From Candidatus Cloacimonadaceae bacterium (lineage in GTDB: Bacteria > Cloacimonadota > Cloacimonadia > Cloacimonadales > Cloacimonadaceae), in assembly GCA_030693415.1 (NCBI GenBank), contig JAUYAR010000055.1, positions 1 through 34,073 on the forward strand: a stretch of DNA of 34,073 nucleotides, written 5' to 3'. The position numbers were made by a program, and so were the translations under genes. The notes beneath the pieces were generated by a model, which did not search any database, had not been told where the DNA came from, and was given only the letters and a program-made list of their open reading frames with translations. How positions within the stretch are numbered: the first letter of the stretch is position 1; every line of letters begins with the position of its first letter. This document shows positions 483 through 34,073 of this stretch, in pieces.

Positions 483-2606
483 ATGAAAGCTCTTGCAATC
501 TGCACGGCTTTGTTATTATGTGTTTCAACCAGCTTTGGGATCAAAGTCCCCCAATCTACCATTCCAGTGAAGACAGACGAGAACAGCCTGACTGAGTTTG
601 TCCGGGTTAGTCCAGATGATAAAGCGTTAGAGAAATTGCTCACCAAGGCATGGTTGTGGCAGGACGGAGACTATTTGGTGGCACACGTTGAGAGCGCGAT
701 AGACAAGGATTTCAAGAGTGGCGCCATTGGTCCCAGAGATCAGTATCCCACTGCTGATTACATCCGCATCCATCTCGTCACCATCCCCGATGCCTACTAC
801 GCTTATTATTACATGGCATTCCCCACCGGCAGCTTGGTTGATGGGGTTCGAAACAGTGATCTGTATATGAGCTCAGAATGGGACAGCCGTTATAGTTATG
901 AGACGGCATCCAACGATACTCTGTGGACGGTGACGATGCGGATACCACTGACTGAGCTGCGGTTCAAGCAAAAACTGCCCTACCGCTGGAAGATTATCCT
1001 GACCAAGTATAACCACGAGGCGAAGGAAAGCTATTCGGTGCCCTATATCAACACGAAAATGGGCAATGACTATTTTCTGAAAGCGCAGGATATTGAACTG
1101 AACCACCTCATCACACAAAAGGTGGATTTGACTTTTCGCTCTTACTTTGTAAAGAGCTATGATCTGATCGCGAAGACCGGCAGCTTTGATCCTGATCATC
1201 TGGGGTTGGACGTTGCCTTCAATCCAGGGCAGCGGACGCGCATCAAGCTGACGATGAATCCCGATTACTCCGATATTCCGCCGGATAATGCCCAAGACAA
1301 TTACAACAGCAAATACCCTCCATATTTAGGTGAAAACCGCTTTTTCTTCACGGAGGATATCGACGTGCTCGGAGTTGAATCCAATACCTTCTATTCCCGA
1401 AATATCGTTCAGCCGCGGCTGGCATTCAAGATGACCGGTAACAGCAAAATCCTGAACTGGGGGCTCCTCGGCGCCTTTGATAAAGAAATCCGTGGTGAAG
1501 GCTACATCATCAATCCCGACGATTACTATCAGGTGTTGGCGTTCGTCCCTTCCTGGCGCAAGTTTCGCAGCTCAAATCTATTGGTCAGCCGCGTGAACGC
1601 CGGATACTATAACCATGTGGGAAGCAGTGGTTTCAGGTGGGAAATCCTACCCAAGGTCTTCCTGAATTCATCCTTGACGGCAAGCGTCAGAAAAAACGAG
1701 AATGAAGCGGACAGTAGCGCCCTCTACGGATACATGACGCATATTTCTCTGGCTGCCAAACCGGGAAATCTGAGTTGCTCTGCAGACTACTCTATGTCCA
1801 GCCGAGATTTGCGCACTGATGCAGGATTTTATGCGGATACCGACTGGGACTCTATTAGCGGGCAGCTCTACTGGAACAGCGAAGACAGCAAGAACTATCT
1901 GGAAAGTTTCAGAATTAGCGCCTGGGGCGGATACAATCGCCTATTTCTCAGCACCACTCCCATCGGCTCTTATCATTCCGGAGCCAACGCCTGGCTCAGT
2001 TTTCGTCCGAAGTTTTCTTTTTCTGGATCTGGCAACAAAGGCACCGATCTGGACTTGAGCAACGCTAAACATGATACGGATCATCTAAGCTTAAGTTTTA
2101 GCTTCCATAGCTGGGATGCAATGGGCGTCTCTTGTGGAGTGGGACGTTCCCACAGCTTGATTTACGACCTTTATGATACGAGGCTCGGGATGAACTATTA
2201 TTCGTTCTTTTGGGGCGCACTAACCAAGAAACTGCGTTATTCGGCGTCGGTCAGGGGGCGTGATTATGACTATCCCAAAGTGAATGTGGTCATTGTGGGT
2301 GGAGACACCTTGACGGTCAAGCTCGACAACCGCTATGCAATCGCCAATGCATCGCTGGCATACACACCCAGCCAAAAACTTCAGCTCTCCAGCGGGATTG
2401 GCATCAGCACCTATGAGCGCGCCGGCTCATTTGCCGATCTAAGCTACTATACCAATATCCGTTATGAGTTTATGAAGGACTATTTCATCTATGCCGGATT
2501 CAAGAGCAATCAGACTATGGATGAGGAATCAAACTATTCTGACCCAATGGGACATTTCCGCAAAAACAGTGCTTCCGCCTATGCGAAATTGGCGGTTACT
2601 TTTTAG
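483..2606 (+). CDS. DUF5916-like outer-membrane protein with CBM9-type N-terminal domain
   Basis: The predicted 707-residue protein starts with a clear signal peptide (MKALAICTALLLCVSTSFG). I chose the ATG at 483 because GAGGTG lies just upstream and the signal peptide begins there; an in-frame ATG at 465 would add six residues in front. Residues of about 25-200 resemble the carbohydrate-binding-module-9-like domain found at the start of DUF5916 proteins. The middle carries the family-like stretch FNPGQRTRIKLTMNPDYSDI followed by a GENRFFF segment (family proteins show PEKRPFFLEG-like text here). The rest alternates polar and aromatic residues as in a beta-barrel and ends in AKLAVTF, a typical terminal-Phe barrel signature. 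Family function is unknown; outer-membrane location is inferred. It stands alone and converges on the minus-strand gene at 2786. Confidence 0.7.
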   Translation: MKALAICTALLLCVSTSFGIKVPQSTIPVKTDENSLTEFVRVSPDDKALEKLLTKAWLWQDGDYLVAHVESAIDKDFKSGAIGPRDQYPTADYIRIHLVTIPDAYYAYYYMAFPTGSLVDGVRNSDLYMSSEWDSRYSYETASNDTLWTVTMRIPLTELRFKQKLPYRWKIILTKYNHEAKESYSVPYINTKMGNDYFLKAQDIELNHLITQKVDLTFRSYFVKSYDLIAKTGSFDPDHLGLDVAFNPGQRTRIKLTMNPDYSDIPPDNAQDNYNSKYPPYLGENRFFFTEDIDVLGVESNTFYSRNIVQPRLAFKMTGNSKILNWGLLGAFDKEIRGEGYIINPDDYYQVLAFVPSWRKFRSSNLLVSRVNAGYYNHVGSSGFRWEILPKVFLNSSLTASVRKNENEADSSALYGYMTHISLAAKPGNLSCSADYSMSSRDLRTDAGFYADTDWDSISGQLYWNSEDSKNYLESFRISAWGGYNRLFLSTTPIGSYHSGANAWLSFRPKFSFSGSGNKGTDLDLSNAKHDTDHLSLSFSFHSWDAMGVSCGVGRSHSLIYDLYDTRLGMNYYSFFWGALTKKLRYSASVRGRDYDYPKVNVVIVGGDTLTVKLDNRYAIANASLAYTPSQKLQLSSGIGISTYERAGSFADLSYYTNIRYEFMKDYFIYAGFKSNQTMDEESNYSDPMGHFRKNSASAYAKLAVTF

Positions 2607-18307: not shown

Positions 18308-21250
18308 CTATTTTGCCAGCACCATCTTCTTGGTGATGAGCTGGGTTGAAGTGCTCAACCGGTAGAGATAGATTCCGCTTGCTGCTTTTCTTCCTTGTTC
18401 ATCCAATCCGTCCCAGAGAATGCTGTGGTTTCCAGCGTTCAGAGTGCTATCTTTGAGCAGTGTTTTGACAAATTGCCCTTTCAGGTTATAGATTTTCAGA
18501 CTTGCCGTATCCGCCTTGACCAGGTCAAAAGCGATGGTAGTGACTGGATTGAAAGGATTGGGATAGTTCTGGTATAACTGCGGCAAAGCTGCCGGGGGGC
18601 TATATTCATCGTCGTTGTCCACCGGAAAGCTGGATATCCTGATCGCTAAGATCGAGGAAATAAAGCCATCGCATCTAAACACTCCGGCACGCGCATCTGA
18701 CCAAAGCAGCATGGCGTTTTCTCCGATGACCGCTGCGCTGATCCCTCTTTGATCGTAAGGCGCGTCGCAAACTACTATCGGAGCATAGCCCACTGCCTGT
18801 CCCTGCGGATTGATATGGCGGATAAATATGTCTTGCCACCCCTCTTGGTCAAGGCTGTTCTCAGACCAATAGCAGGTCATCTTTCCGCTGGCATATTTGA
18901 GCAGAACTGCTCCATCGCAGTTATCAAGCTCGGAGCTTATGAGGTTTCCAGCTTGGGGATAAAGCAATGTGCCGGAAGAAGATATCTTTTGCAGACGCAA
19001 GTCCCATGTATTGGAAAAAAACATATAGACAAACGTGACCGCTTCGTCATAAACTGCGTCCATGACCCACAAATTGGCTCCCAGGGCAATGCCGTTATCA
19101 CCCCACTCACGCGTTCCGGCGGAGCTGATCTTTTGGACAAAGACGTTTGGTGTGTATAAAAAACTGATGAAGACGATCAGGTCATCTCCATTCAAACCAC
19201 ATTCGACTATCCCCTGATTGTCGGTGTTGTCTTCCGAGAGCAGAGAAACGCCCGCGGCGCTCCAACCCGCTTCCGGATAACCGTTAGCGTTCATCAGCAG
19301 TGCCTTTACACTACTTTCCGAAGTCATTTCGTCTAAGCGATGTTTCCAAAGAAAGTATCTACCCCGCACTGTGGAAAAACACACGCCGCCATAATCAGCA
19401 TGTGATGCAATCACGATCCCGTTTTCACCCCACATTTTCTGTCCGCCGGAGACGCGTTGCCCTTTGACCAGTCTCGCATTCGAGATATTTTCGCTCCATC
19501 CGATATAGATGTCCCCATCGGAATAGCTCAGATCAACGCTTGCCTCCAAAAAACTACCGGAGGCGATGATGATTCCTCTATCCGGATAGATCGTCGTTCC
19601 GTTGTGATCGATTTTCTGGAGATAGCATTTCATCACGTTTTGCACAGGAGTGGAATAGAGAATTGCGACGGAGTTATCCGGCAGTCCGATCAAGCGGAAA
19701 TAGGAATCCTCTCCCGGAGCTAAATTCAACGCTCTGCCGTTTGCCTCCAACTGCGGATTTAGGTCTGAATAGCTGATCTGATAATAGATTTTGTGTTCAT
19801 TGCTGCGAGAGTCTATCCAGGCGCTGAAGTATTTGTCGTTCATGGCGATCGTGTTGCCTCCGGCTGCCATTCCATTTAGGACATCGACCACCGGAAGCCC
19901 GCCTTGGGCAAGATACAAAGTGCCGCCGGTACTGACTACCTGGCGGCGGATAAGCTTTTTCACTCCGGTAACTTCCTGCCACAAAAACATGGCACGATCG
20001 GCAAAGGCGATGCAGACGGGGCTTTGCACCCACCGGTCGGCGATGCTCAGTTGCATCCCCCCGGTAGCCCATTGCGGAGTGCCGGAGGAGTCAAAATGCT
20101 GTGCCTTCACCTGTAATTCCTGATCGTCATTCTGAGACAGAATCCAACTGATCCAGGCTTTACCGTTGGCATGCACGCTCAGGCGCTTTTGACGGATAAC
20201 GAGACCTTGACCGCTGCAGATCTCGATCCCTCCCGGAGTCCAAAGCGGAGCGAAGCTGGCGTCCAGCTTCTGGATCATAAATCTTGAGATCCATGTGTCG
20301 GTCACATCATTCCAGATGATCACCAGCCCGCCATCGGGTGTGCATTGAAGTTTCACGGCATCGTCGCCATAATAGACCGGGGCTATGCCGGTATTTACGG
20401 CTCCGGGCAGCAGCAGGTTGCCGCTGTTGTCCATTTTATGCAGATACAGCACATTTTCGTAATCTGTGAATGTAGAGAATAGTATGAACTCGCCACCCAC
20501 GCCCGGTGTGATCGAATACTTGCCTCCGGGAAAAGCCGCAGCCGCCAGCATGGGGTTGTTCCCGATCACTTCTCCGGAGGGGGAAACGCGAAGTAAATGA
20601 TTCCCCGCCTGGCTGATTTTAACGTTTACGATCGCTCCTCCGCTGCCGTCTCTCACCGCTGCATCTATCGAAAAGTAAGTGCTGAAACTGTGAATAGCAG
20701 CTCCTCCGGCTTGCCAAAGCTGATTGCCCCAGCCGTCCAGATTCTGTCCCAAAAGAATATTCGCTCCCATGATGTTCCGGAAAAAGACATAGGCGCCACC
20801 GTTTGCGTTTGGCACCAAACAGTGTCTGTAATAATAAGCGACGGTATCCGTGATCTGGATTCCGCCTGCGGGCCATAATAGCTGTCCGTTGGAGGTAAAC
20901 TTTTGCACCCAGATCGTGACCGGGGATTTGATTGGACCATCTTCCCACATGATGATGAAGTTATTGTCCGAGCTGGGAATCACCGCGTTGATGGTTTGTC
21001 TTCCGGGTTTGAGGACGATCGGCAATGGCTGCTGCCACAACATTTGTCCGGAAGAATTGATCTTCTGGGCATAAATGTTCAGATCGCCGCCTATGGTGTC
21101 CTCCCAGAGCACAATCTCGCAATTATCCGGCGTGCGGATGTGATGCGTGTTCCAATGGATGGTCCTTCCCTCGCGGATGGCAATTTCCTCCGCGGAAACC
21201 GAACAAGCCAAAACCAATAGCAACAAAGCCGTGAGCAGCAAAATACGCAT
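18308..21250 (-). CDS. Large secreted repeat protein with YQNYPNPFNP sorting / FlgD-like tail
   Basis: The 980-residue protein begins with a signal peptide (MRILLLTALLLLVLACSVSA); the ATG at 21250 is preceded by GGAGGTTCTC, while the frame continues 14 codons further without support. The body consists of repeats around a motif like SSGQ-LW-GGI-I (for example SNGQLLWPAGGIQITD, SSGTPQWATGGMQLS, SAGTREWGDNGIALG), suggesting a beta-propeller or similar repeated sheet fold. The last 90 residues begin LPQLYQNYPNPFNPVTTIAF and end GIYLYRLSTSTQLITKKMVL, the FlgD-like/type-A sorting module seen in Cloacimonadota, Ignavibacteria and relatives. It is probably exported and held at the surface. Binding target unknown. 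It stands alone, with a strong terminator after it. Confidence 0.85.
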   Translation of the reverse strand: MRILLLTALLLLVLACSVSAEEIAIREGRTIHWNTHHIRTPDNCEIVLWEDTIGGDLNIYAQKINSSGQMLWQQPLPIVLKPGRQTINAVIPSSDNNFIIMWEDGPIKSPVTIWVQKFTSNGQLLWPAGGIQITDTVAYYYRHCLVPNANGGAYVFFRNIMGANILLGQNLDGWGNQLWQAGGAAIHSFSTYFSIDAAVRDGSGGAIVNVKISQAGNHLLRVSPSGEVIGNNPMLAAAAFPGGKYSITPGVGGEFILFSTFTDYENVLYLHKMDNSGNLLLPGAVNTGIAPVYYGDDAVKLQCTPDGGLVIIWNDVTDTWISRFMIQKLDASFAPLWTPGGIEICSGQGLVIRQKRLSVHANGKAWISWILSQNDDQELQVKAQHFDSSGTPQWATGGMQLSIADRWVQSPVCIAFADRAMFLWQEVTGVKKLIRRQVVSTGGTLYLAQGGLPVVDVLNGMAAGGNTIAMNDKYFSAWIDSRSNEHKIYYQISYSDLNPQLEANGRALNLAPGEDSYFRLIGLPDNSVAILYSTPVQNVMKCYLQKIDHNGTTIYPDRGIIIASGSFLEASVDLSYSDGDIYIGWSENISNARLVKGQRVSGGQKMWGENGIVIASHADYGGVCFSTVRGRYFLWKHRLDEMTSESSVKALLMNANGYPEAGWSAAGVSLLSEDNTDNQGIVECGLNGDDLIVFISFLYTPNVFVQKISSAGTREWGDNGIALGANLWVMDAVYDEAVTFVYMFFSNTWDLRLQKISSSGTLLYPQAGNLISSELDNCDGAVLLKYASGKMTCYWSENSLDQEGWQDIFIRHINPQGQAVGYAPIVVCDAPYDQRGISAAVIGENAMLLWSDARAGVFRCDGFISSILAIRISSFPVDNDDEYSPPAALPQLYQNYPNPFNPVTTIAFDLVKADTASLKIYNLKGQFVKTLLKDSTLNAGNHSILWDGLDEQGRKAASGIYLYRLSTSTQLITKKMVLAK

Positions 21251-21331
21251 GAGAACCTCCAGGTGCTTTCGCGATGACATAGCATGTAGCAAATATTATT
21301 CCATCTTTGGAAGAATATCCCAAAAAGGAAC

Positions 21332-21856: not shown

Positions 21857-21969
21857 GAGACTTGGTATGTGTTTATCAAATTACTGATTCGATTTACATC
21901 TTTGGCAGGGCTTGTATCAAGCCTGAAAAGCATGAAGCGAAATCAGGCAAGATACTATCGGGAATAGGT

Positions 21970-24900
21970 ATGATCAGATTAGAAGACATAAAAGCAGGAG
22001 CCCTGATTCAGGGCTTGGAACCGGGAGAAGTGGTTCGCATTGTGACGAGTGAACCCATCGGAACTAATGCGCTCACAGTTTATTACAAGAAAAACGACGG
22101 CGCCCTTTTAGAACGTCTGATTTACCGCACTGACGAGATCAATCTTGCACTGGCAGTATCCGGTCGTCCTTGGTCATTTGATGCGGCAGGTGCTGATTTT
22201 AAGCTGGCTGTGGAGGCTTGCCGGATCAATCTCGCATATCTCTTTGACCCTATGATGGCAGTGCATACTTCAAACATTGAACCCTTACCTCATCAAATCA
22301 CCGCAGTTTATGAATCCATGCTTCCCAGGCAACCGTTGCGCTACATCCTTGCTGATGATCCCGGAGCAGGAAAGACGATCATGGCAGGGCTATATATGCG
22401 GGAACTTATCATGCGAGCCGATGCCAAACGCATATTGATTATTGCTCCCGGTTCATTAGTAGAGCAGTGGCAAGATGAAATGTATGAGAAGTTCGGTCTG
22501 GATTTCTTTATATTTTCTCGTGATATGGAAGCCCAATCTCATAGTGGAAACCCCTTTGAGGATTTTGATTACCTGATTGCCCGGATAGACATGGTTTCTC
22601 GTGATGAAGAGCTGATGGAAAAGCTGAAACTCACCTATTGGGACTTGGTGGTGATAGATGAAGCCCATAAGTGTTCTGCATCATGGTTTGGCAATGAACT
22701 AAAGAAGACCAAACGCTATAAACTTGCCGAAGATGTGGGCAGCATCACCCGGCATTTCCTTTTGATGACGGCTACACCTCATAAGGGCAAGGACGAAGAC
22801 TTTCAAACCTTCCTGGCACTACTTGATTCTGACCGCTTCTATGGCAAAACTCGTGATAGTGCACAATCTATAGATATTTCCGACCTTATGCGTAGAATGG
22901 TAAAGGAAGAGCTGCTCAAATTTGATGGCACTCACCTTTTCCCTGAGCGGAAAGCCTATTCAGTCTCGTATAAGCTTTCAGATCTGGAAGCTGAGCTATA
23001 CCTTGCTGTTACTGAATACGTTCGTGAGGAAATGAATAAGGCAGACCGACTGGAAGGCAAGCAAAGGAATACCATCGGCTTTGCACTTACAATTCTGCAA
23101 CGCCGTCTGGCATCGAGCCCGGAAGCGATATACCAATCTTTAAAACGCCGGATGGAAAAGCTGACCCGCAGATTGGAAGAGGAAAAGCTCATCCTGCGAG
23201 GTGAACTGATTCGTAAGGCAGATGATTTGGACGTCCCGGAAGACCTTGACGATTTGAATAGTGAAGAGCAAGAAAACATGGAAGAGGAATTGGTCGATAG
23301 AGCTACCTCTGCTCAGACCATCCAAGAATTTGAGCATGAAATCATCATCCTGACCAGACTTACCAAACAAGCAAAAGAGCTGCGTGATTCAGGTCTTGAC
23401 CGCAAGTGGGAAGAGCTTTCCAACCTCTTTGAGAACAACCCACATATACGAGAAAAGAGCGGTCGTTATCGCAAGCTCATAATCTTTACCGAGCATCGAG
23501 ATACCTTGAATTATCTCCATAACCGGTTAAACGATTTGATTGGCAATCCAGGTGCCGTTATCATCATCCACGGTGGTGTCAAACGAGAAGAACGGCACAA
23601 AGCTCAGGAGCTGTTCCGAAACGACCCCAGAGTTAGTATTTTGCTGGCAACTGATGCTGCCGGTGAAGGTGTGAACCTCCAAAATGCCAACCTGATGGTC
23701 AATTATGACCTACCCTGGAATCCCAATCGCATTGAACAGCGCTTTGGACGTATCCACCGTATTGGTCAGCAGGAAGTCTGCCATCTCTGGAATATGGTGG
23801 CAATGGAAACTCGGGAAGGCGATGTATTCCTCAATCTCTTTAACAAACTCGAAATACAGAGACAAGCTCTGGGTGGACGTGTATTCGATATCCTCGGTGA
23901 TGTCTTTGAAGAAATAAGCCTGCGGGATTTACTCATTGAAGCCATCCGTTATGGAGACGACCCTGTCGTGCGAGCCAGGCTCTTTGAAGTGGTGGAAGGC
24001 GTGCTCGATACCGAACATATCAAAAACATCCTCAACCGCAATGCCTTGTGTGAGGAAGTGATAGACGAAAAGCGCCTTTTTTCAGTAAAAGCAGAGATGG
24101 AAAAAGCTGAAGCCAGGAAGCTGCAGCCCTATTTCATTCGTGCCTTCTTCAGCAAAGCCTTTGAACAACTCCGTGGTGAGCTTCGAGCACGTGAATCCGG
24201 CAGATGGGAAATCACCTATGTTCCTGCCAACATTCGTGAAAGAGATCGACAGATATCAGGCAGAAACCGACGTAATATGAATCCCGTCACTACAAAGTAT
24301 GAGCGTATCTGCTTTGATAAACAGTTCGTTCGGTTAGCCACCCGGGAATTGGCAATGGCAAGTTTTATCCATCCCGGACATCCACTCATGATGGCTGTAA
24401 CGGATTTGATGCTGGAAGCGCATCGAAACAAACTGAAACAAGGCTCTGTGATGCTCGATCCCAACGATGATGGCATAGTGCCCAAAGCACTGATTATCAT
24501 CGACCATGCTATCAAAGAAGGTTATAATCGGGATCGATGCGTCTCCCGTCGGATGCAGTTTGTAGAAATCACTCCCGAAGGAGTTGTCAGTAATTCCGGT
24601 TGGGCACCCCATCTCGATCTTGAACCCATTTCAGATAGTGATTTAAATCTGATCAAAGGCATCCTCTCGTCTGAATGGCTATCAGAGAATTTGGAACAGG
24701 AAGCTCTTGCCTATGCCACTGCTCAGCTTGCACCAGAACACTTTAGTGAAGTGCAAAGCCGCAGAGAGCAGCATGTTTCCAAGACTCTAACTGCGGTGCA
24801 TCAAAGACTAATCAAAGAGATAAACTACTGGTCGGATCGCAAAATCAAGCTGCAGGATGATTTGGCTGCCGGAAAGCAAACCAGAGTTAACATAGATAAC

Positions 24901-25473
24901 GTAAATCGTACCATAGATGAGCTAACTCATCGGCTTGAATCCAGAAGCAAAGAGCTGAAAGAAATGCGCCATATCGTCTCAGAAACACCTCATGTCATTG
25001 GCGGTGCTTTGATCATTCCTGCTGGTTTGATAGCTCAAATCAAAGGTGAACCCAACTGGTCTGCCGATGCAGAAGCTCGTAGCCGGATTGAACTGAAAGC
25101 CATGCAAGCTGTGATGAATTACGAGAAGTCACTTGGATGCGATGTTATTGATGTTTCAAGTAATAACTGTGGTTGGGACATCACCAGCATTCCACCGATG
25201 CTGAATGGTCGCTTACCTGAGACCAAGCACATCGAAGTAAAGGGAAGGGTCAAAGGACAATCCACGATCACAGTTACCCGCAACGAAGTTCTCTATGGCT
25301 TGAATCAGGCAGATAAATTCATCCTGGCGATTGTCGTCATAGATGGTGATGACTTTGAAGGGCCTCACTATATCCGTAATCCTTTTACTCTGGAACCTGA
25401 TTGGGCAGTAACCAGCATCAATTTGGATATAGGCAGTTTGCTGAATAGGGCATTTAATAATGAGGGTTTATGA
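21970..25473 (+). CDS. SNF2/HepA-type helicase with C-terminal DUF3883 domain
   Basis: The 1167-residue protein is a superfamily-2 ATPase of the RapA/HepA kind. Walker A is ADDPGAGKT (residues 128-136), the DEAH box VIDEAH is at 228-233, motif III reads [10 protein letters not shown], and the helicase C domain ends in [17 protein letters not shown]. The last 130 residues or so match DUF3883, with GWDITSIPP and [12 protein letters not shown] and ExK residues there recall a PD-(D/E)xK nuclease site; activity is inference. I start at 21970 ([10 protein letters not shown]), where family similarity begins, although the frame is open from 21862. This is the same helicase group (COG0553) as BrxHII of BREX type 3. 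The stop overlaps the next ATG by four bases (ATGA). Confidence 0.9.
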
Positions 25474-26498
25474 ATAAGGATATAGCAGCTTTTAAACCAG
25501 AGTTTTGGGTTTATAGTTCAGAAGATGGAACTATAAAAATCCAAGCCAATCTGAAGGGCGAAACTCTATGGCTTTCGGCTTTACAAATGTCGGAGCTTTT
25601 TGGCATAAACATTTCTGGCATTAGAAAACACCTAAAGAACATCTTTGATAGTGGAGAACTCGAGCGGGATTCAGTTAGTGCAATTTTTGCCTTAACTGCT
25701 AGTGATGGGAAAACCTATAAGGTAGAACATTACAACCTTGATGCCATCATATCTGTGGGTTACCGTGTGAATAGCATCATTGGCACCAGATTCCGCATTT
25801 GGGCTACTCAGCGCTTGAAAGAATACCTGATCAAAGGCTTTACGATGAACGATGAGCTTTTGAAGCAAGCTGGCGGCGGCTCTTATTTTGACGAATTGCT
25901 CTCCAGAATCAGGGATATCCGCTCCTCTGAAAAGGTCTTTTGGCGTAAAGCGCTGGATATCTATGCTACCAGTATCGATTATTCTCAAAGGGCTGAAGTC
26001 TCCCGCGATTTCTTCAAAGTAATCCAAAACAAAATGCACTGGGCAAGCCACGGTCACACCGCTGCAGAGATTATCTACCAGAGAGCCGATGCAGAGCTGC
26101 CAAACATGGGCTTAACGAATTGGCCCGGATCAAAGCCACTTAAAGCAGACACAGAAATTGCCAAAAACTACCTCAATAAAGAGGAATTGGATATCCTTAA
26201 CCGGATCGTAAGCATGTACTTGGATTTTGCTGAATTGCAGGCATTGAACAGAACGCCCATGTATATGAAGAATTGGATTGTGAAGCTGGATGAATTCCTA
26301 AAGCTTAGTGGAAGAGATATTCTGGGACACTCAGGAAATGTAAGTCATGAAAAAGCCCTGCTCAAAGCCCGCTTGGAATATGATAAATGGCATCACACAG
26401 AGCTTGAACAGCCTTCGGATGCTGACAAACACTTTGTGGAAGCAATGGACGAAGTTAAACAGATTACCAACCAAACCAAGCCTAAGAGAAATAAATGA
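25470..26498 (+). CDS. RhuM family protein
   Basis: The 342-residue protein matches the virulence RhuM family: an N-terminal [20 protein letters not shown], a helix-turn-helix-like part [20 protein letters not shown], then [22 protein letters not shown] and [19 protein letters not shown]. The C-terminal half includes the [20 protein letters not shown] segment typical of longer family members. Biochemical function is unknown. RhuM genes are often found inside type I restriction-modification operons, and here the gene overlaps both neighbours by an ATGA (25470-25473 and 26495-26498), so its translation is tied to the helicase and methylase. Confidence 0.88.
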
Positions 26499-29407
26499 GT
26501 GAATACAAAGTTAGAGCACCCAAGAAGCTAATAGAAGTAGCGCTTCCTCTCAAAGAAATAAATGAGGCTTGTGTCCGTGAAAAGTCCATCCGGCATGGTC
26601 ATCCTTCTACTCTGCATTTGTATTGGGCAAGGCGACCTCTTGCTGCTGCCCGAGCGGTTCTGTTTGCTCAATTAGTCAATGACCCCGGCTGGGATGAGGC
26701 GTTGCAAATCGGTAAGAAACGTAAAACCGATGCCAATAAAGAGCGTGAACGGCTCTTTGAGATCATCCGCAAACTGGTGAAATGGGAAAATACCAATAAC
26801 GAAACAGTATTGGAAGAAGCCAGAGCTGAGATTCGTAAAAGCTGGAAAGTAACCTGTGAACTAAATAAAGACCATCCCGATGCGGCAACCCTCTTTAACC
26901 ATGATAAACTCCCCGCTTTCCATGATCCCTTTGCCGGGGGAGGTTCCATTCCCTTGGAAGCCCAACGACTTGGCTTGGAAGCTTGGGCAAGCGATCTGAA
27001 TCCGGTAGCTGTGCTGATCAATAAAGCCATGATTGAGATACCACCTATGTTTGTGGGCAGACGTCCAATTGGACCTATCCCGGAGCATGAAAAACAGATG
27101 GAGATGGAAAGATATACGTGGGGTGGAGTTAGCGGCTTGGCAGAGGATGTCCGCAGATATGGACATTGGATGAGAGAAGAAGCATATAAACGTATTGGAC
27201 ACTTTTATCCTCCAATCGAAGTGACTCCAGAAATAGTGAAAAATAGACCTGATTTAAGTCAATATAAAGGAAAGCATCTTACAATTATTGCCTATATTTG
27301 GGCAAGAACTGTTAAAAGTTCTAATCCGCTCTTTTCGCATGTCGATGTTCCATTAGTATCAACTTTTCTATTATCCGACAAGGTCGGTAAAGAAGCTTAT
27401 ATTGAGCCGATTATTGATGGAGATAAATACGATTTTAAAGTCCGTGTTGGTATGCCAGATGATATTGAGACTGTAAAGAAAGGTACTAAGGCAACTGGCA
27501 GGACATCTAATTTCTATTGCTTGCTATCTAATACTCCAATAGATGGGAAATATATCAAATCAGAAGGTCAAGCTGGTAGAATAGGCACAAAACTAATGGC
27601 ATTAGTAGCAGAAGGAAAGAATTGTAGAGTGTATCTTTCTCCGGATGAGCATCAGGAGATGATAGCAAAATCCGCAGTTCCCACTTGGAAACCAGAGCAA
27701 TATCTTGTTGGTAAAAGTGCAGATCAATTACCTTTATATGGGATGAAACAGTATAAAGATCTGTTTTCAGATAGGCAGTTGATGGCGCTAAATACTTTCT
27801 CAGAACTAATCCCTGAGGTAAAGCAACTTGTATCAACGGTAGAGGGTTCAATAATTGGGTACAAAGTTGATTCTCCTCTAATTATCAAAAACATTGGGGT
27901 ATCATTTTTAGAAGCGATTTCATTATATTTAAGCTATGTTATTGATAAATGCACTGATTATTGGACTAATGTATGTAGTTGGCATATTAGTAAGTCATTA
28001 ATCAGAAATACATTTGGTAGGCAGGCAATAGCGATGGTATGGGACTATGCAGAAACTAATCCATTCAGTTCTTCTTCTGGCAACTTGATTTCCATGTTAG
28101 ATTGGGTATGCCAGGCAATTAAAAAATTACCTGCTCAGCAACATGGAATAGCAGTTCAATCTGACGCTGCTATTCAGGATATCTCAGCTAACAAAATTGT
28201 CTCGACTGATCCCCCATATTATGATAACATTATGTATGCTGATTTATCGGATTTTTTCTATGTTTGGCAGAAACAATCACTGAAATCAATCTTCCCATAT
28301 TTATTCACTACTTTGGCAACCCCCAAAGAGAACGAACTTGTAGCCTCCCATTATAGACACAGAACAAAGAAGGAAGCAGAGCAGTTTTTTCTGTCTGGCA
28401 TGATCAAGGCTATGAGCAATATCTCTCATCAATCGCATCTAGCGTTTCCAGTAACTATTTATTATGCCTTCAAGCAATCAGAGACTACCGATGGTGGTAG
28501 TTCTTCTACTGGGTGGGTTACTTTTTTAGAAGCTGTTATTGAATCAGATATGGCAATTGTTGGTACTTGGCCAATGCAAACAGAACTTGCAAACAAGGTA
28601 AGTGGTATTGGCAGCAATATGCTTGCCTCGTCAATTATCCTTGTCTGCAGAAAACGCGGTGATAATACTCTTAGCATCTCCCGAAAGGACTTTCTCCGTA
28701 AACTTAGCTCATCGCTGCCAATAGCCCTGGACGCCATGATCAATGGTAGTGAGACCTCAAGCCCTGTTGCTCCGGTTGATTTAGCGCAAGCTACCATTGG
28801 GCCCGGAATGGCAGTTTATTCCAAATACAAAGCAATCTTAGAATCTGACGGCAGTCCAATGACGGTACATACAGCGCTTATTCTCATCAACAAAGTTCTG
28901 GATGAGTATTTCAAAGAGCGGGAAGGCGATTGGGATAATGATACCCGTTTCTGCCTGCAGTGGTTTAGCGAATATGGTTGGAAAGAAGGTGCTTATGGTG
29001 AGGCGGAAGTGCTTGCCACGGCAAAGGGGCTTTCTGTCGAAGGTGTGCGTGATAGTGGAGTTTTGATTGCCGGCAGTGGTAAAGTGCGCCTGTATCGCCC
29101 GGCTGAGTATCCCTCGGACTGGAATCCACTTAAAGATGACCGAACTCCAGTCTGGGAAGTATTGCATCAGCTAATCCGGGCACATCAAACCAGTGGCGAA
29201 TCTGCTGCCGCAGAGATAGCATCGGCAGTTCCGCAATTAGCAGCAACTGCCAGACAGCTTGCTTTCCTGCTATATACTTTGTGCGAACGTCAAGGCTGGG
29301 CAGAAGATGCCAGACCCTATAATGATCTTGTCACTGCCTGGCTTTCCATCGAAAAACAAGCTCAGGATAGAGGTATAAAAGGTGATCAGATTGAGGCTGA
29401 GTTTTAG
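26495..29407 (+). CDS. DUF1156 adenine-specific DNA methylase (COG1743-like), zinc ribbon lost
   Basis: The 970-residue protein begins with the DUF1156 hallmark: KKLIEVALPLKEINEACVRE, then RHGHPSTLHLYWARRPLAAA. The SAM-binding motif is DPFAGGG (residues 144-150) followed by ASDLNPVAVLINKA; the catalytic motif is STDPPYYDNIMYADLSDFF (DPPY at 572-575). It is expected to methylate adenine N6 in DNA. Family members normally carry a zinc ribbon (ARTVKCPNPxCG-like, then CPxCG); here these read ARTVKSSNPLFS (269-281) and CLLS (342-345), so three of four cysteines are gone. The stretch of about 27130-28300 is much AT-richer than both ends, suggesting replacement of the target-recognition part. PglXI of BREX type 3 belongs to this group. 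Confidence 0.9.
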   Translation: MSEYKVRAPKKLIEVALPLKEINEACVREKSIRHGHPSTLHLYWARRPLAAARAVLFAQLVNDPGWDEALQIGKKRKTDANKERERLFEIIRKLVKWENTNNETVLEEARAEIRKSWKVTCELNKDHPDAATLFNHDKLPAFHDPFAGGGSIPLEAQRLGLEAWASDLNPVAVLINKAMIEIPPMFVGRRPIGPIPEHEKQMEMERYTWGGVSGLAEDVRRYGHWMREEAYKRIGHFYPPIEVTPEIVKNRPDLSQYKGKHLTIIAYIWARTVKSSNPLFSHVDVPLVSTFLLSDKVGKEAYIEPIIDGDKYDFKVRVGMPDDIETVKKGTKATGRTSNFYCLLSNTPIDGKYIKSEGQAGRIGTKLMALVAEGKNCRVYLSPDEHQEMIAKSAVPTWKPEQYLVGKSADQLPLYGMKQYKDLFSDRQLMALNTFSELIPEVKQLVSTVEGSIIGYKVDSPLIIKNIGVSFLEAISLYLSYVIDKCTDYWTNVCSWHISKSLIRNTFGRQAIAMVWDYAETNPFSSSSGNLISMLDWVCQAIKKLPAQQHGIAVQSDAAIQDISANKIVSTDPPYYDNIMYADLSDFFYVWQKQSLKSIFPYLFTTLATPKENELVASHYRHRTKKEAEQFFLSGMIKAMSNISHQSHLAFPVTIYYAFKQSETTDGGSSSTGWVTFLEAVIESDMAIVGTWPMQTELANKVSGIGSNMLASSIILVCRKRGDNTLSISRKDFLRKLSSSLPIALDAMINGSETSSPVAPVDLAQATIGPGMAVYSKYKAILESDGSPMTVHTALILINKVLDEYFKEREGDWDNDTRFCLQWFSEYGWKEGAYGEAEVLATAKGLSVEGVRDSGVLIAGSGKVRLYRPAEYPSDWNPLKDDRTPVWEVLHQLIRAHQTSGESAAAEIASAVPQLAATARQLAFLLYTLCERQGWAEDARPYNDLVTAWLSIEKQAQDRGIKGDQIEAEF

Positions 29408-29422
29408 TAGTGAGGAGATATC

Positions 29423-30784
29423 ATGCTGAGGATAGTTGAACTGCTTGCCCGGGAAGAAGGCAAGACTCTGGAATTCAAGCGTGATTGCAGTTCGCTTGAT
29501 CCGATTGTCAAAACAGTGATAGCCTTTGCCAATACTGCTGGTGGCCAAATTCTGATTGGGATTCGAGATCAGAACAAAGAGATAGTTGGGGTTGAAGATC
29601 CTACCAGCGATGAATCCAGGTTGTGTAATGCCTTCTCTGACATGATATGCCCACAAATGATCCCCGACATAAATATAATAAACTACAGGGGATTATCCCT
29701 TCTTTTGATTAGCGTCCCTCATCTCAGCGGACCGTATTACCTTAGATCGGTTGGCTTGGAGCGTGGTGCATATATCCGTTTGGGGTCATCAAACCGTGTG
29801 GCAGATGTGGACATGCTTGAAGAGCTCAAACGCCAGGCACAGAATAAGTGTTATGACGAAACTCCTCTGCTCGGAATGAACTCGGAACAAATAGACTTCC
29901 GAGTAGCTTCCGAGTTGTTTGCCAAGCATGGTAAACTCATTGATATGAATAAGCTTGCGAATATAGGAGCTCTGCAATTACATGGTGAGAGGCTGGTACC
30001 AAGTATTGGAGGACTACTTCTATTTGGCTTAAACAAAGCAACGGAGTTTCCCGATGCAAAAGTTAAATGTGCCAGATTCAAAGGGACCGTGAGTACTGAA
30101 TTCGTGGACAATCTGGAAACCAGTTCGGGCTTGATAGATGCTGTGGATGAAACTATTGCATTTATCCGCAGACACTCCAAACAGGGGCTGGAGATTGGCA
30201 CCATCGCCCACAAGGTAATCTCGGAATATCCTGATATAGCTATACGGGAAACGGTTATAAATGCCATTGTTCACACCGATTATGCTATCAAGGGGATGAG
30301 TATCAGAGTGGGAATTTTTGATGATAGAATTGAAATCACGAATCCTGGAAGCCTACCCTTCGGGATTAGCATGGAGCATTTATTCTCTGGTGTATCCAAG
30401 CTGAGAAACAGAGTAATCGGCAGGGTATTTCATGAACTGGGCTTGATTGAGCAATGGGGTACAGGTATTTCCAGAATCAAAGAAACCTGTCGCCTGGCAA
30501 ATCTTCCCGAGCCGCGCTTTGAGGAACTTGGCGGGAGCTTTAGAGTAACTCTATATTCTAGTTCTCAGCCACATATTGCTAAACGGGGATGGGAGTTGCA
30601 GCTTGTGGAATACCTGCAAAAACATCAGGAAATAAGCTCAAAGCAAGCAGCAGACCTTTGGGGAATAAGTGAAAGGGCTGCCAGAACGAAGCTAAAGGTT
30701 TTGATTGAGGATAGAGTCATTACCAAGATCGCCACCAACCCCAACGACCCTAAAACTGTATATGTATTACAATCTTGGAATTGA
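29423..30784 (+). CDS. AlbA_2 (Schlafen-like) ATP-binding protein with HATPase-like and winged-helix parts
   Basis: The 453-residue protein has an N-terminal AlbA_2 domain (residues about 5-125; REEGKTLEFKRDCSSLD, FANTAGGQILIGIRD, GAYIRLGSSNRVA). A HATPase_c_4-type region follows (about 270-380; ETVINAIVHTDYAIKG, RIEITNPGSLPFG, GLIEQWGTGISRI), and a C-terminal winged helix (EISSKQAADLWGISERAARTKL). Such proteins are annotated as transcriptional regulators or ATP-binding proteins; the AlbA_2 fold is shared with Schlafen nucleases. GAGGAG precedes the ATG. It lies 15 bases after the methylase and 12 before the DUF499 gene. It may regulate the operon or be a second effector; both are guesses. 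Confidence 0.88.
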   Translation: MLRIVELLAREEGKTLEFKRDCSSLDPIVKTVIAFANTAGGQILIGIRDQNKEIVGVEDPTSDESRLCNAFSDMICPQMIPDINIINYRGLSLLLISVPHLSGPYYLRSVGLERGAYIRLGSSNRVADVDMLEELKRQAQNKCYDETPLLGMNSEQIDFRVASELFAKHGKLIDMNKLANIGALQLHGERLVPSIGGLLLFGLNKATEFPDAKVKCARFKGTVSTEFVDNLETSSGLIDAVDETIAFIRRHSKQGLEIGTIAHKVISEYPDIAIRETVINAIVHTDYAIKGMSIRVGIFDDRIEITNPGSLPFGISMEHLFSGVSKLRNRVIGRVFHELGLIEQWGTGISRIKETCRLANLPEPRFEELGGSFRVTLYSSSQPHIAKRGWELQLVEYLQKHQEISSKQAADLWGISERAARTKLKVLIEDRVITKIATNPNDPKTVYVLQSWN

Positions 30785-30796
30785 TCAGGAGACAAC

Positions 30797-33637
30797 ATGA
30801 TAAAAGCATGGCGAGACATCGCAATTCCGCATCAGGACGTGCTGAAAGGCACTTTCAAACAATCAGAATTTGCAGCAGACCTTTCACGAGTGCATACCGG
30901 TGATGCCGGTGAAGAATACCAAAACCCGGTTATGTTCTTTCAAAGAACCTTTATCACAGAAGGGATGAGGTTGCTTTTAGATTCAGTTATCCAGCGTCTT
31001 AGCGGCAAAGATGGTGACCCGGTCATACAATTACAAACAGCTTTTGGTGGTGGGAAAACGCATACCATGCTGGCTGTTTACCATCTTGCCAAGGGCGAAA
31101 CACCCTTATCTGAATTGCAAGGCATTCCACCTATTATTGATAAAGCCGGTATCACTTCATTACCTAAATCGAAAGTAGTAGTAATTGATGGAAATAATCT
31201 CAAACCTGGAAGTACTTGGGTTAGAGATGGAATTACAATTAATACTCTTTGGGGCGAACTTGCCTGGCAATTGGGTGGAGCAAATGGCTATGAACTGGTC
31301 AAACAATCTGACTTGAGCGGAACTTCTCCCGGCAAGGAAGATTTGATCACACTTCTCAAGCAATATGCACCCTGTGTGATCCTGGTCGATGAATTGGTGG
31401 CATATATACGTCAATTTGAACCCGGCAAGACCTATACAGGTGGCAGCTATGACTCTAACATCTCTTTTATCCAAGCTCTGACCGAAGCTTTAAAAACAGT
31501 ACCAAATGCTCTAATGCTGGTTTCCTTGCCAGATTCCAATCGGGAAGCCGGAAGCCAGAATGGAGTCAATGTACTCAGAACTCTGGAGCATTTCTTTGGA
31601 CGCATCCAAGCACTGTGGAGACCGGTAGCTACTGAGGAAGCTTTTGAGATAGTCCGTCGCAGGTTATTTTCCAATATCACTGACCAAGCTTCAGTGGAAG
31701 AAACCTGTCGAACCTTTGCAGACTATTATATCGCCAATAAGAACGACTTTCCCAATGAAACGCAGGAAGCCCACTATTATGAACGATTGAAACAGGCATA
31801 TCCTATCCATCCGGAGATCTTTGACCGTCTCTATGAAGACTGGTCATCTTTGGATAACTTCCAGAGGACACGCGGAGTATTGAAACTGATGGCAAAGGTC
31901 ATTCACAAACTCTGGATAGACGATCATAAAGACCCGCTGATCATGCCCGGTAATCTGCCGCTGTATGATGCTGATGTACGAAATGAAACTATTTATTACC
32001 TACCCCAAGGTTGGGATCCTGTATTGGAAAGGGACATTGATGGTTCTCGATCTGAAACTGCCCATATTGAGAGGAACGAAGCCAGGTTTGGTCAGTTACA
32101 GGCTTGCAAGAAGCTGGCACGAACCATCTTCTTTGGAAGTGCTCCCCACGCTGTGGCTTTGCATTCCGCCCGATCTTCACGTGGAATCGAATACAATAGA
32201 ATCCTGCTTGGTAGCGTCCAACCAAATCAGGTGATTGGAATCTTCAAAGATGCCATGAATAGACTGGTGGATAAGCTGCATTACCTGAGCAATGCTGATA
32301 ACAAACTGTTTTGGTTTGATACGCGTCCTAACCTCAGGCGGGAGATGGAAGACCGCAAACGCCGCTTTAATGATAAAGACGATGTCGTGCCGGTAATCAA
32401 AATAGAACTTCAGCGGTTGCTGCCCAATGGCTGTTTCGACGGAATCCATATTTTCACACGTTCTGATGATATTCCGGATGATTACTCGCTTCGGCTGGTT
32501 ATCTTGCCACCTGATGCCTATTATCTACGTTCTGGAGGCAGCCTTGCCATTGACGGCGCGCCGAATAGTGATGGAGCTAAAAAAATACTCACAAACCGGG
32601 GAGAACAACCGAGACTGAAACAGAACCGACTTATCTTTCTTGCTGCCGATGGGGACGTTGTAGGCAGGTTGAAAGACCAGGTGCTTACATTGTTGGCTTG
32701 GGATTCCATTCTCAAAGATATTCAAACCGTGAAACTCAATCTCGATCAATACCAAAGCAGACAAGCAAAGACCGGATTTGAAGATGCTAAGAAGTCATTG
32801 GATCGAATTGTAAAAGAAACCTATAAATGGATATTAGTGCCAGAGCAGGTTAAAGTGCCGGGAGATAAGTTTGAGCCTTTTACGATCAATCCGAGTGTGC
32901 CAAATATTGTGGAAGAGATTGAACGGATTCTCAAAGAAAGCGAGCATCTGATTACTGGGTGGGCGCCGATTCATTTGCATAACCTGCTCAAGAGATGGTT
33001 CTGGAAGGACGATGTCAAAGAAGTGAGAGCTAAGGATATATGGCATAGCACCTGTTGTTATCTGTATCTGCCAAGGCTCAAGAATGAAAACACATTCTCG
33101 AATGCTATCAATGCCGGAGCTGAGAACAGAGACTTCTTTGGTTTGGCTTATGGAAAGGAAACAGATAAGTATATTGGGTTCTCTTATGGAACGCTCGTGT
33201 CTCCTGTGTTTGATAGTTCGCTGCTGCTAATCGACCCTCTGTGGGCAGCGGAGTATCAGGCTAATAAGGTTGTGATGGTTGGTCCTCCAAATCAACCATT
33301 AGTTGGCACTGAAACAGGTGGAAGAGGTATTGGTGGTGCGACAGGTAGTGGCACTACTCCTCCCGGAGGCGTTGGCGGTGGTGGAGCAACACCCATTCCT
33401 ACAGTTATACGAAAACACTTTTATGGGAGAGTGGATTTGAAACCAACCCGTGCAAAAGCGGACTTTGCTACGATTGTGGAAGAGATTGTCCTGCATCTGA
33501 TTAATAGCCCAACGGTTATTGCCGGCATCAAAATCGAAATCGAAGCAGACTGCCTTGAAGGGTTTGACGAAGCCACCCAGCGCACGATCAAAGAGAACTG
33601 CAATACACTCAAGTTTGATTTGAGTGAGTTTGAGTAA
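30797..33637 (+). CDS. DUF499 ATPase (COG1483-like)
   Basis: The 946-residue protein starts [20 protein letters not shown], as in DUF499 proteins. Walker A is [10 protein letters not shown] (residues 81-90), Walker B is [12 protein letters not shown] (193-204), and a sensor-like strand LMLVSLPDS (239-247) follows. Late in the protein (about 837-866) is a glycine-rich linker ([11 protein letters not shown] onward), then an 80-residue tail ([20 protein letters not shown] onward). DUF499 is also found in BrxC/PglY of BREX, but this protein is shorter than typical BrxC. AGGAGA lies before the ATG. As the ATPase partner of the methylase and helicase it may power a large DNA-sensing or remodelling complex; that role is inferred. 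Confidence 0.88.
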
Positions 33638-33699: not shown

Positions 33700-33996
33700 A
33701 TGAATTTTAACGAAATTTGGACAGGTGCGAGATGGTGGAAATTTGACATCCAAACGCATACTCCTGCTTCTGATGATTATCCGATTAAAACTGATTCACC
33801 AGAAGAATGGCTAATAGCTTATATGAAAGCTGGAATAGACTGTGTTGCAATTACAGACCATAATTCAGGAGATTGGGTTGATAAGCTAAAACAAACCTAT
33901 TTGCATATGCAACAATCTAATCCATCCGGGTTTGGATATTTCGGAGTAACTGAGCCATGTGTTTCGCCTAATGAGAGCCATGCTCTCGGAAAATAG
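33700..33996 (+). pseudogene. 5' fragment of a TrlF-like PHP-domain gene
   Basis: The first 80 or so residues match the start of PHP-domain/ATPase proteins of the TrlF kind: ARWWKFDIQTHTPASDDYP, SPEEWLIAYMKAGIDCVAIT and DHNSGDWVDKLK. Full proteins of this type are many hundreds of residues long; here the frame stops after 98 codons, and the last 20 codons no longer look like the family, where a FPGVE-type strand is expected. The break coincides with the GAGCCA repeats that begin at 33952. The PHP motif normally reads HTHTPAS after FDF or FDI; here the first histidine is glutamine (CAA), so metal binding is probably damaged. It lies 62 bases after the DUF499 gene. Confidence 0.6.
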
Positions 33997-34073
33997 AGCC
34001 ACTCAATTCGCTGATCAGAGCCAGTATGGCTTATACTATTAGATAGCAATCAGTTGTGCCATATTGTAGATGG
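33946..34073. mobile_element. Probable insertion-sequence end (IS21-like terminal repeats)
   Basis: GAGCCA occurs at 33952, 33975, 33996 and 34018, at steps of 23, 21 and 22 bases. Regularly spaced sites of this kind are typical of the multiple transposase-binding repeats at the ends of IS21-family elements. The array starts exactly where the PHP gene loses its family resemblance. No transposase is visible before the window ends, so family and exact boundary are unproven. Confidence 0.45.

What the first reader, a model, noticed from the sequence alone, without database searches (positions are those of the whole stretch)
33700..34073. PHP gene downstream of the operon broken by a probable IS21-type end
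Seen: the TrlF-like PHP start loses family resemblance after about 80 codons, its first metal histidine is glutamine, and four GAGCCA motifs spaced 21-23 bases apart begin at the break. Known: evenly repeated transposase sites mark IS21-family ends. Inferred: an insertion sequence has cut the last gene of the defence cluster, perhaps in step with decay of the system.
Basis: partly seen in the sequence, partly recalled or inferred. Interest (0 to 1): 0.5.

Follow-up and report, generated by a model that had tools for sequence, protein, structure and literature searches.

The report
IS21 element interrupting a phage-defence gene
A common kind of jumping gene (IS21 family) sits inside a phage-defence nuclease gene next to an otherwise intact-looking defence operon, and because the genome carries many copies of it the assembly stops there; this is ordinary biology, well documented here.

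Summary
The window is one whole contig of a Cloacimonadota genome. Its last 141 bases (33933-34073) are the istB-side terminus of an IS21-family element, with four GAGCCA sites 21-23 bases apart. Twelve such right ends (this one included) and eleven left ends were found in the genome. One sister copy runs into an istB remnant; another contig holds istA and istB in IS21 layout. Four other copies have both flanks, with 5-6 bp target duplications. The cut gene is an N-terminal piece (77 whole codons) of a Ppl/TrlF-type PHP-ATPase; its close homologues run about 890-930 codons, two of them beside hmaC. In 9 of 11 right ends measured, this one included, the contig stops 139-141 bases into the element, so the stop looks like an assembler repeat break. 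Not shown: the far side of this insertion. Neither a matching target duplication nor the rest of the gene was found in the 99.8%-complete assembly, so simple insertion, IS-linked deletion and missing contigs stay open. 'Decay of the system' is not supported: five upstream defence genes have no inner stops and cover their profiles or domains. The histidine-to-glutamine change is real and unique among the homologues examined. Verdict: ordinary IS21 gene disruption.

The parts
33933..34073 (-). Right (istB-side) terminus of an IS21-family element, reading inward on the + strand; its istB would lie to the right on the - strand, as in the C94 copy. Contig ends 141 bases inside the element.
   Evidence: Same start in 12 right ends of the genome; copy in C94 leads to an istB remnant; element part at the contig end 139-141 bases in 9 of the 11 right ends measured, the others 119 and 49.
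33952..34023 (+). Four GAGCCA sites (33952, 33975, 33996, 34018), probable IstA-binding terminal repeats
   Evidence: near-identical spacing in the five left and right ends compared. The role as IstA sites is inferred from the IS21 literature.
33928..33932 (.). GGGTT, the expected target-duplication copy on this side; the partner copy was not found
   Evidence: Position deduced from 5-6 bp duplications of four other copies; no partner with up to one mismatch.
33700..33932 (+). 5' fragment (77 whole codons) of a Ppl/TrlF-type PHP-AAA ATPase gene; holds PHP motifs I (with Q18 in place of H) and II; the reading frame runs 21 codons into the IS, stop codon ending at 33996
30797..33637 (+). hmaC, DUF499 ATPase, 946 aa, full length
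   Evidence: PADLOC HmaC profile 3-940 of 941
29423..30784 (+). Schlafen/AlbA_2 plus HATPase_c_4 protein, 453 aa, embedded between hmaB and hmaC
   Evidence: Both Pfam domains complete (1-117 of 118, 1-89 of 89); whole-protein length not compared with an orthologue
26495..29407 (+). hmaB, DUF1156 DNA methyltransferase, 970 aa, full length
   Evidence: PADLOC HmaB profile 3-964 of 967; DPPY and DPFAGGG present
25470..26498 (+). RhuM-family gene, 342 aa
   Evidence: Pfam PF13310 2-248 of 252; PADLOC PDC-S05 7-328 of 330
21862..25473 (+). hmaA, SNF2/DEAD helicase with NOV_C, 1203 aa from first TTG (profile match starts at residue 37)
   Evidence: PADLOC HmaA profile 1-1172 of 1176

Best explanation
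An IS21-family element transposed into codon 78 of a Ppl/TrlF-type PHP-ATPase gene that sat directly behind hmaC. IstA binds the repeated GAGCCA sites at each end, and IstA with IstB joins the ends to target DNA with a 5-6 bp duplication (steps inferred from sister copies and from IS21 biology). The insertion removes everything behind PHP motif II, so the rest of the metal site and the whole ATPase part are lost and the nuclease should be dead; hmaA-hmaB-hmaC with the Schlafen and RhuM genes remain intact in sequence. The contig stops because the element is multi-copy. Shown: the terminus, its boundary, the multi-copy state, istA and istB in sister copies, target duplications of four sister copies, truncation of the gene. 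Inferred: that a full or partial element lies to the right here, and that Ppl function is lost.
For: The window end matches 15 other places in the genome: 11 right ends and 4 left ends. works with 12 right ends (the window's included; TGGAYATTYCGG...) and 11 left ends (TGAATAAT...). C94: the same end, then a 180-codon istB remnant on the opposite strand (PF01695, 153 bits over a cut-off of 24), cut by an IS630-like transposase (name recalled). Control: that Pfam family is over its cut-off in 12 of 14 control genomes, so it says little alone; the IS21 transposase model is over its cut-off in 3 of 14. C46: left end, istA 543 aa (244 bits, cut-off 160) overlapping istB by 4 bases (istB cut by the contig end, 203 bits, cut-off 200). 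Four right/left pairs share a duplication in the right orientation: CACTT, CCAAG, ATTAT (5 bases) and TTCAAT (6 bases). For five-base matches, random flank positions give 0.16 on average and never 3 in 2000 draws; the six-base pair lies outside that control. Two of the four joined empty sites give open frames of 692 and 210 codons; the other two give only 75 and 35. Element part at contig ends: 139-141 bases in 9 of 11 right ends, and 138-140 in 5 of 8 left ends. Left and right ends align as imperfect inverted repeats, with the four-site pattern in the five ends compared. Complete homologues: E. coli plasmid Ppl 891 aa; a 927-codon frame of Methylococcus capsulatus inside an Hma operon, 56% identical over the fragment.
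Against: For this copy no partner flank of 4 or more bases exists among the 11 left ends, nor does a pattern search with one mismatch find one. The rest of the Ppl gene was not found in the assembly: the family search gives only the window fragment, and a full-length homologue gives only that plus three weak hits, one a short PHP frame and two that look like ordinary ABC-transporter ATPases by eye. The bin holds contigs down to about 1 kb (20 of 185 lengths seen) and is 99.8% complete. None of the four right ends of this subfamily (C55, C94, C120, C162) has a matching duplication. The element part of contig ends is not uniform: 119 and 49 at two right ends, 154-225 at three left ends. So rearrangement or deletion after insertion, or insertion into an already broken gene, is not excluded.
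Confidence: 0.9

Rival explanations
1. The IS end now borders the gene fragment because of an IS-linked deletion or recombination between two IS copies; the rest of the Ppl gene is gone and the far flank is unrelated DNA.
For: No rest of Ppl found in a 99.8%-complete bin that keeps contigs of about 1 kb. No target duplication for this copy nor for its three closest right-end relatives. Twelve right and eleven left ends offer much substrate for recombination.
Against: Missing or unbinned contigs give the same picture; unmatched flanks are also common for the other subfamily (4 of 8 right ends).
Confidence: 0.4
2. Simple insertion with an intact mate that is missing from the assembly; only the far contig was lost.
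For: Four sister copies show both flanks with 5-6 bp duplications, as simple insertions do.
Against: The remaining part of the gene alone would be about 2.5 kb, above the size of several kept contigs (six of the 20 lengths sampled are 1009-2439 bases).
Confidence: 0.45
3. Assembly chimera: the gene fragment was wrongly joined to the repeat.
For: The contig is from a fragmented assembly (185 contigs) and ends in a repeat.
Against: The junction falls on the same terminal base as at the 11 other right ends and leaves a 141-base element overlap, close to that of 8 others, as expected of a graph branch at the true boundary.
Confidence: 0.04
4. The gene ends here naturally as a short PHP protein of 98 aa.
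For: The frame is open to 33996.
Against: The last 21 codons are IS terminus; close homologues run about 890-930 codons.
Confidence: 0.01

Closest known systems
IS21 family insertion sequences (istA/istB)
   Same: istA-istB order with a 4-base overlap, both proteins over NCBIfam cut-offs in sister contig C46, TG... ends, repeated terminal sites forming inverted repeats, 5-6 bp target duplications in four sister copies
   Different: Four repeats in each of the five ends compared; the passage seen in PMC11208146 gives 'at least two' per end for the archetype. A length near 2.7 kb is my composite estimate from two subfamilies (coordinates), not a measured element.
Ppl, single-gene anti-phage PHP-ATPase (E. 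coli)
   Same: 54% identity over 72 residues of the PHP start, motifs I and II in register
   Different: Only 77 whole codons left; Q at the first motif-I histidine; lies behind hmaC
TrlF family AAA-like ATPase (NF045780)
   Same: The complete Hma-embedded homologue of M. capsulatus scores over this model's cut-off (612 bits against 350) and under Ppl's (520 against 1000)
   Different: The fragment itself scores better with Ppl (90 against 70 bits)
Hma system (treated as part of the DUF499-centred BREX-related systems in PMC12839542)
   Same: HmaA, HmaB and HmaC full length in order, with an embedded Schlafen gene
   Different: RhuM gene between hmaA and hmaB (also in relative G017); Ppl fragment behind hmaC rather than before it as in the two other Ppl-bearing loci

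Membership tests
IS21 family | IstA DDE transposase of the family | tested here: met
   C46 istA 543 aa, NF033546 244 bits against cut-off 160. This is a sister contig, subfamily 2; not readable in the window copy.
IS21 family | IstB helper ATPase downstream of and overlapping istA | tested here: met
   C46 istB overlaps istA by 4 bases, NF038214 203 bits against cut-off 200 with its end cut by the contig; C94 istB remnant next to the same right end as the window's
IS21 family | Terminal inverted repeats made of repeated sites | tested here: met
   Four GAGCCA sites in the window's end and in four other ends compared, ends alignable as inverted repeats; the C41 left end has GAGGCA at its first site
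IS21 family | Short target duplication | tested here: met
   5, 6, 5 and 5 bp in four sister copies, of 12 right ends
IS21 family | Short target duplication at the window's own copy | tested here: inconclusive
   No partner flank in the assembly
Ppl anti-phage protein | N-terminal PHP start with motifs I and II | tested here: met
   motif I carries Q in place of its first H
Ppl anti-phage protein | Whole-protein NCBIfam cut-off (1000 bits) and ATPase part | tested here: not met
   90 bits, 77 residues only: a fragment, not a functional member
Hma system | HmaA, HmaB and HmaC together | tested here: met
   Near full-length PADLOC matches

The most novel reading that the evidence does not exclude
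This IS21 lineage repeatedly lands in the nuclease or helicase genes of defence systems while neighbouring genes stay intact: of five insertion sites whose gene context was read (the window plus four target-duplication pairs, of 12 right ends known), three lie in defence genes: ppl here, a probable restriction endonuclease beside its methyltransferase (C67/C78), and a TOTE primase-helicase (C46/C140). This would be selection for silencing self-harming effectors, or preferred landing in defence islands. The sample is five and was not set against the share of defence genes in the genome; the endonuclease match is under its Pfam cut-off, and the TOTE gene also shows a frame break near the insertion, so it may have been broken already.
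Probability: 0.1. Interest if true: 0.45.

Novelty: new member of a known kind. Interest (0 to 1): 0.22.

Why it matters
It explains why the contig ends and why the gene looks broken, so this Ppl should not be counted as an active defence gene while the Hma operon can be. It shows that the slot behind hmaC varies between relatives (Ppl here; a Shedu SduA gene in G013 and, by likeness of the frames only, in G038) and that a Ppl plus Schlafen pair sits before hmaC in two bacteria of another phylum. The wider question of whether IS elements disproportionately silence defence nucleases can be tested with the same pairing of ends.

Tried and rejected
Natural gene end: rejected, close homologues run about 890-930 codons. 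Chimera: unlikely, same terminal base as 11 other right ends and a 141-base overlap. Search for the far side: left-end search, duplication pairing, pattern with one mismatch, family and homologue searches for the rest of Ppl: nothing usable. ORFs next to the other ends: a 968-aa frame with a PHP-like start beside the C13 end begins differently from Ppl and was not matched by the Ppl family search. Other Cloacimonadota as a source of an intact version: 24 of 124 genomes match Ppl, the window's own among them, but the closest to the fragment come from elsewhere: M. capsulatus, a Hydrogenophaga bin, E. coli plasmids and viral contigs. Among the 33 named hmaC loci plus 8 stretches from the phylum (two of these repeat named loci: L125 = L148, L132 = L152), only L113 and L127 show Ppl in the stretch held; many stretches are cut close to hmaC, and weak rows (E over 1e-8, except for the fragment) were dropped before that table. 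Decay of the operon: no inner stops; dN/dS about 0.06 (hmaA, G013), 0.09 (hmaC, G038) and 0.11 (hmaC, G013), averages that cannot see very recent relaxation. The repeat-protein frame split by C118/C131 was not tested against families (one search failed); TPR is by eye. E. coli Ppl against solved structures: 10 sequences, Rad50 or SMC ATPases only, no Ppl.

Papers: PMC11208146, PMC8565338, PMC12839542 and PMC12904381 were seen as found passages only; a find in PMC13092281 gave none. Eight literature searches ran; searches gave nothing usable. That Ppl was first described in a 2020 screen is recalled, not seen.

Full report
The window is the whole of contig C55 (34073 bases) of a genome of 2.81 Mb in 185 contigs, 99.8% complete. 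The phylum is inferred to be Cloacimonadota: two contigs of genomes of the same family have the same lengths and the same matches as records named so (G013 C97 and PHBQ01000020, 41139 bases; G023 C108 and JAJBBF010000036, 6286 bases).

Four GAGCCA sites lie at 33952, 33975, 33996 and 34018, a spacing pattern absent from 100 shuffles. The frame that begins at 33700 matches the anti-phage protein Ppl over residues 8-74 and loses resemblance at 33933.

What begins at 33933 is a terminus of an IS21-family element. Searching the genome with the window's end gives 15 other places, 11 of them right ends. Twelve right ends (the window's included) and eleven left ends were then compared. The copy in C94 runs from this same terminus into an istB remnant on the opposite strand, which is then cut by a second transposase, IS630-like by recall. 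Contig C46 carries a left end, istA and istB, both over NCBIfam cut-offs. In the five left and right ends compared, four sites recur at nearly the same spacing, and a left and a right end align as imperfect inverted repeats. [quoted passage not shown]

Pairing the flanks of the 12 right and 11 left ends gives four pairs with a target duplication in the correct orientation: C118/C131 CACTT, C67/C78 CCAAG, C35/C110 ATTAT and C140/C46 TTCAAT. The chance mean for five-base matches is 0.16, and no draw of 2000 gave three; the six-base pair is outside that control. The window's own flank (GGGTT) has no partner, nor do the three right ends most like it. The element makes up 139-141 bases of the contig end in 9 of 11 right ends measured (141 in the window; C162 has 119, C105 has 49) and 138-140 in 5 of 8 left ends (the other three 154-225). 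This is what one expects if an assembler with k near 141 (a recalled MEGAHIT setting) stopped where several flanks meet one repeat.

The interrupted gene is a Ppl/TrlF-type gene. Complete homologues are an E. coli plasmid Ppl of 891 aa, a 927-codon frame in Methylococcus capsulatus between hmaB and a Schlafen gene of the Hma operon, and a frame of about 917 codons in a Hydrogenophaga bin upstream of a Schlafen gene and hmaC (its contig begins just before the gene). Motif I reads DIQTH here; in the 17 distinct motif contexts recovered from other loci the residue is H each time (two contexts, from L059, L061 and L182, belong to short PHP proteins that are not Ppl). A 2026 review (PMC12904381, two passages seen) describes E. 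coli Ppl as a single-strand 3'-5' exonuclease with a PHP exonuclease domain and an NTPase domain, so the loss of everything behind motif II should abolish function (inference).

The rest of the gene was not found in the assembly, although contigs down to about 1 kb are kept (20 of 185 contig lengths sampled). This leaves simple insertion with a lost contig and IS-linked deletion about equally likely.

The defence operon itself looks intact: HmaA, HmaB and HmaC match nearly the whole PADLOC profiles, the RhuM gene nearly its whole profile, the Schlafen gene both its Pfam domains; no inner stops occur, and pairwise dN/dS is about 0.06 (hmaA), 0.09 and 0.11 (hmaC). Decay of the system is therefore not supported. 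[quoted passage not shown] the terms PHP, TrlF and histidinol were not found in its main text as held.

In relatives the slot behind hmaC holds other genes: a Shedu SduA gene and a 558-aa gene in G013 and, by likeness of the frames, in G038 (SduA profile tested only for G013). Other copies of the same IS lineage interrupt a 692-codon frame that looks like a TPR protein by eye (C118/C131), a probable type II restriction endonuclease beside its methyltransferase (C67/C78; RE_MjaI 20.1 bits, under the cut-off of 22.7; PADLOC REase_II 18 bits), and a TOTE primase-helicase gene with a frame break near the insertion (C46/C140), while C35/C110 seems intergenic. Three of five sites in defence genes is suggestive but too few to claim a preference.

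Noticed in passing
L083:103-582 (+) and 557-1624 (-), contig C78, with C67: Another IS21 copy with duplication CCAAG splits a probable MjaI-like restriction endonuclease gene (weak family match); the methyltransferase beside it matches 1-335 of a 352-position PADLOC profile.
   Followed up: partly
L192:796-3131 (C46) and L032:138-260 (C140): An IS21 copy with duplication TTCAAT sits in a TOTE conflict-system primase-helicase gene, which also shows a frame break near the insertion.
   Followed up: partly
L132:15828-16304 (G013): A GmrSD_N/DUF262 start is fused to a second copy of the hmaC 3' tail, 3 kb behind the full hmaC, with a Shedu gene between: a scar that suggests cassette exchange behind hmaC.
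   Followed up: partly
L127:5963-9761 and L113:110-3884: A Ppl/TrlF-type gene followed by a Schlafen/AlbA_2 gene lies before hmaC in Methylococcus capsulatus and a Hydrogenophaga bin; a Schlafen-like match also lies on 5 of 19 stretches fetched around Ppl matches in the window's phylum.
   Followed up: partly
L188 near 6988 (C41) and L191 near 576-714 (C164): IS21 left ends inside long contigs; the IS21 transposase search gave no match on these contigs, so they may be old remnants.
   Followed up: no
window 18308-21292 (-): A 994-aa protein with FlgD_ig and Por secretion-tail domains lies upstream of the defence operon.
   Followed up: no
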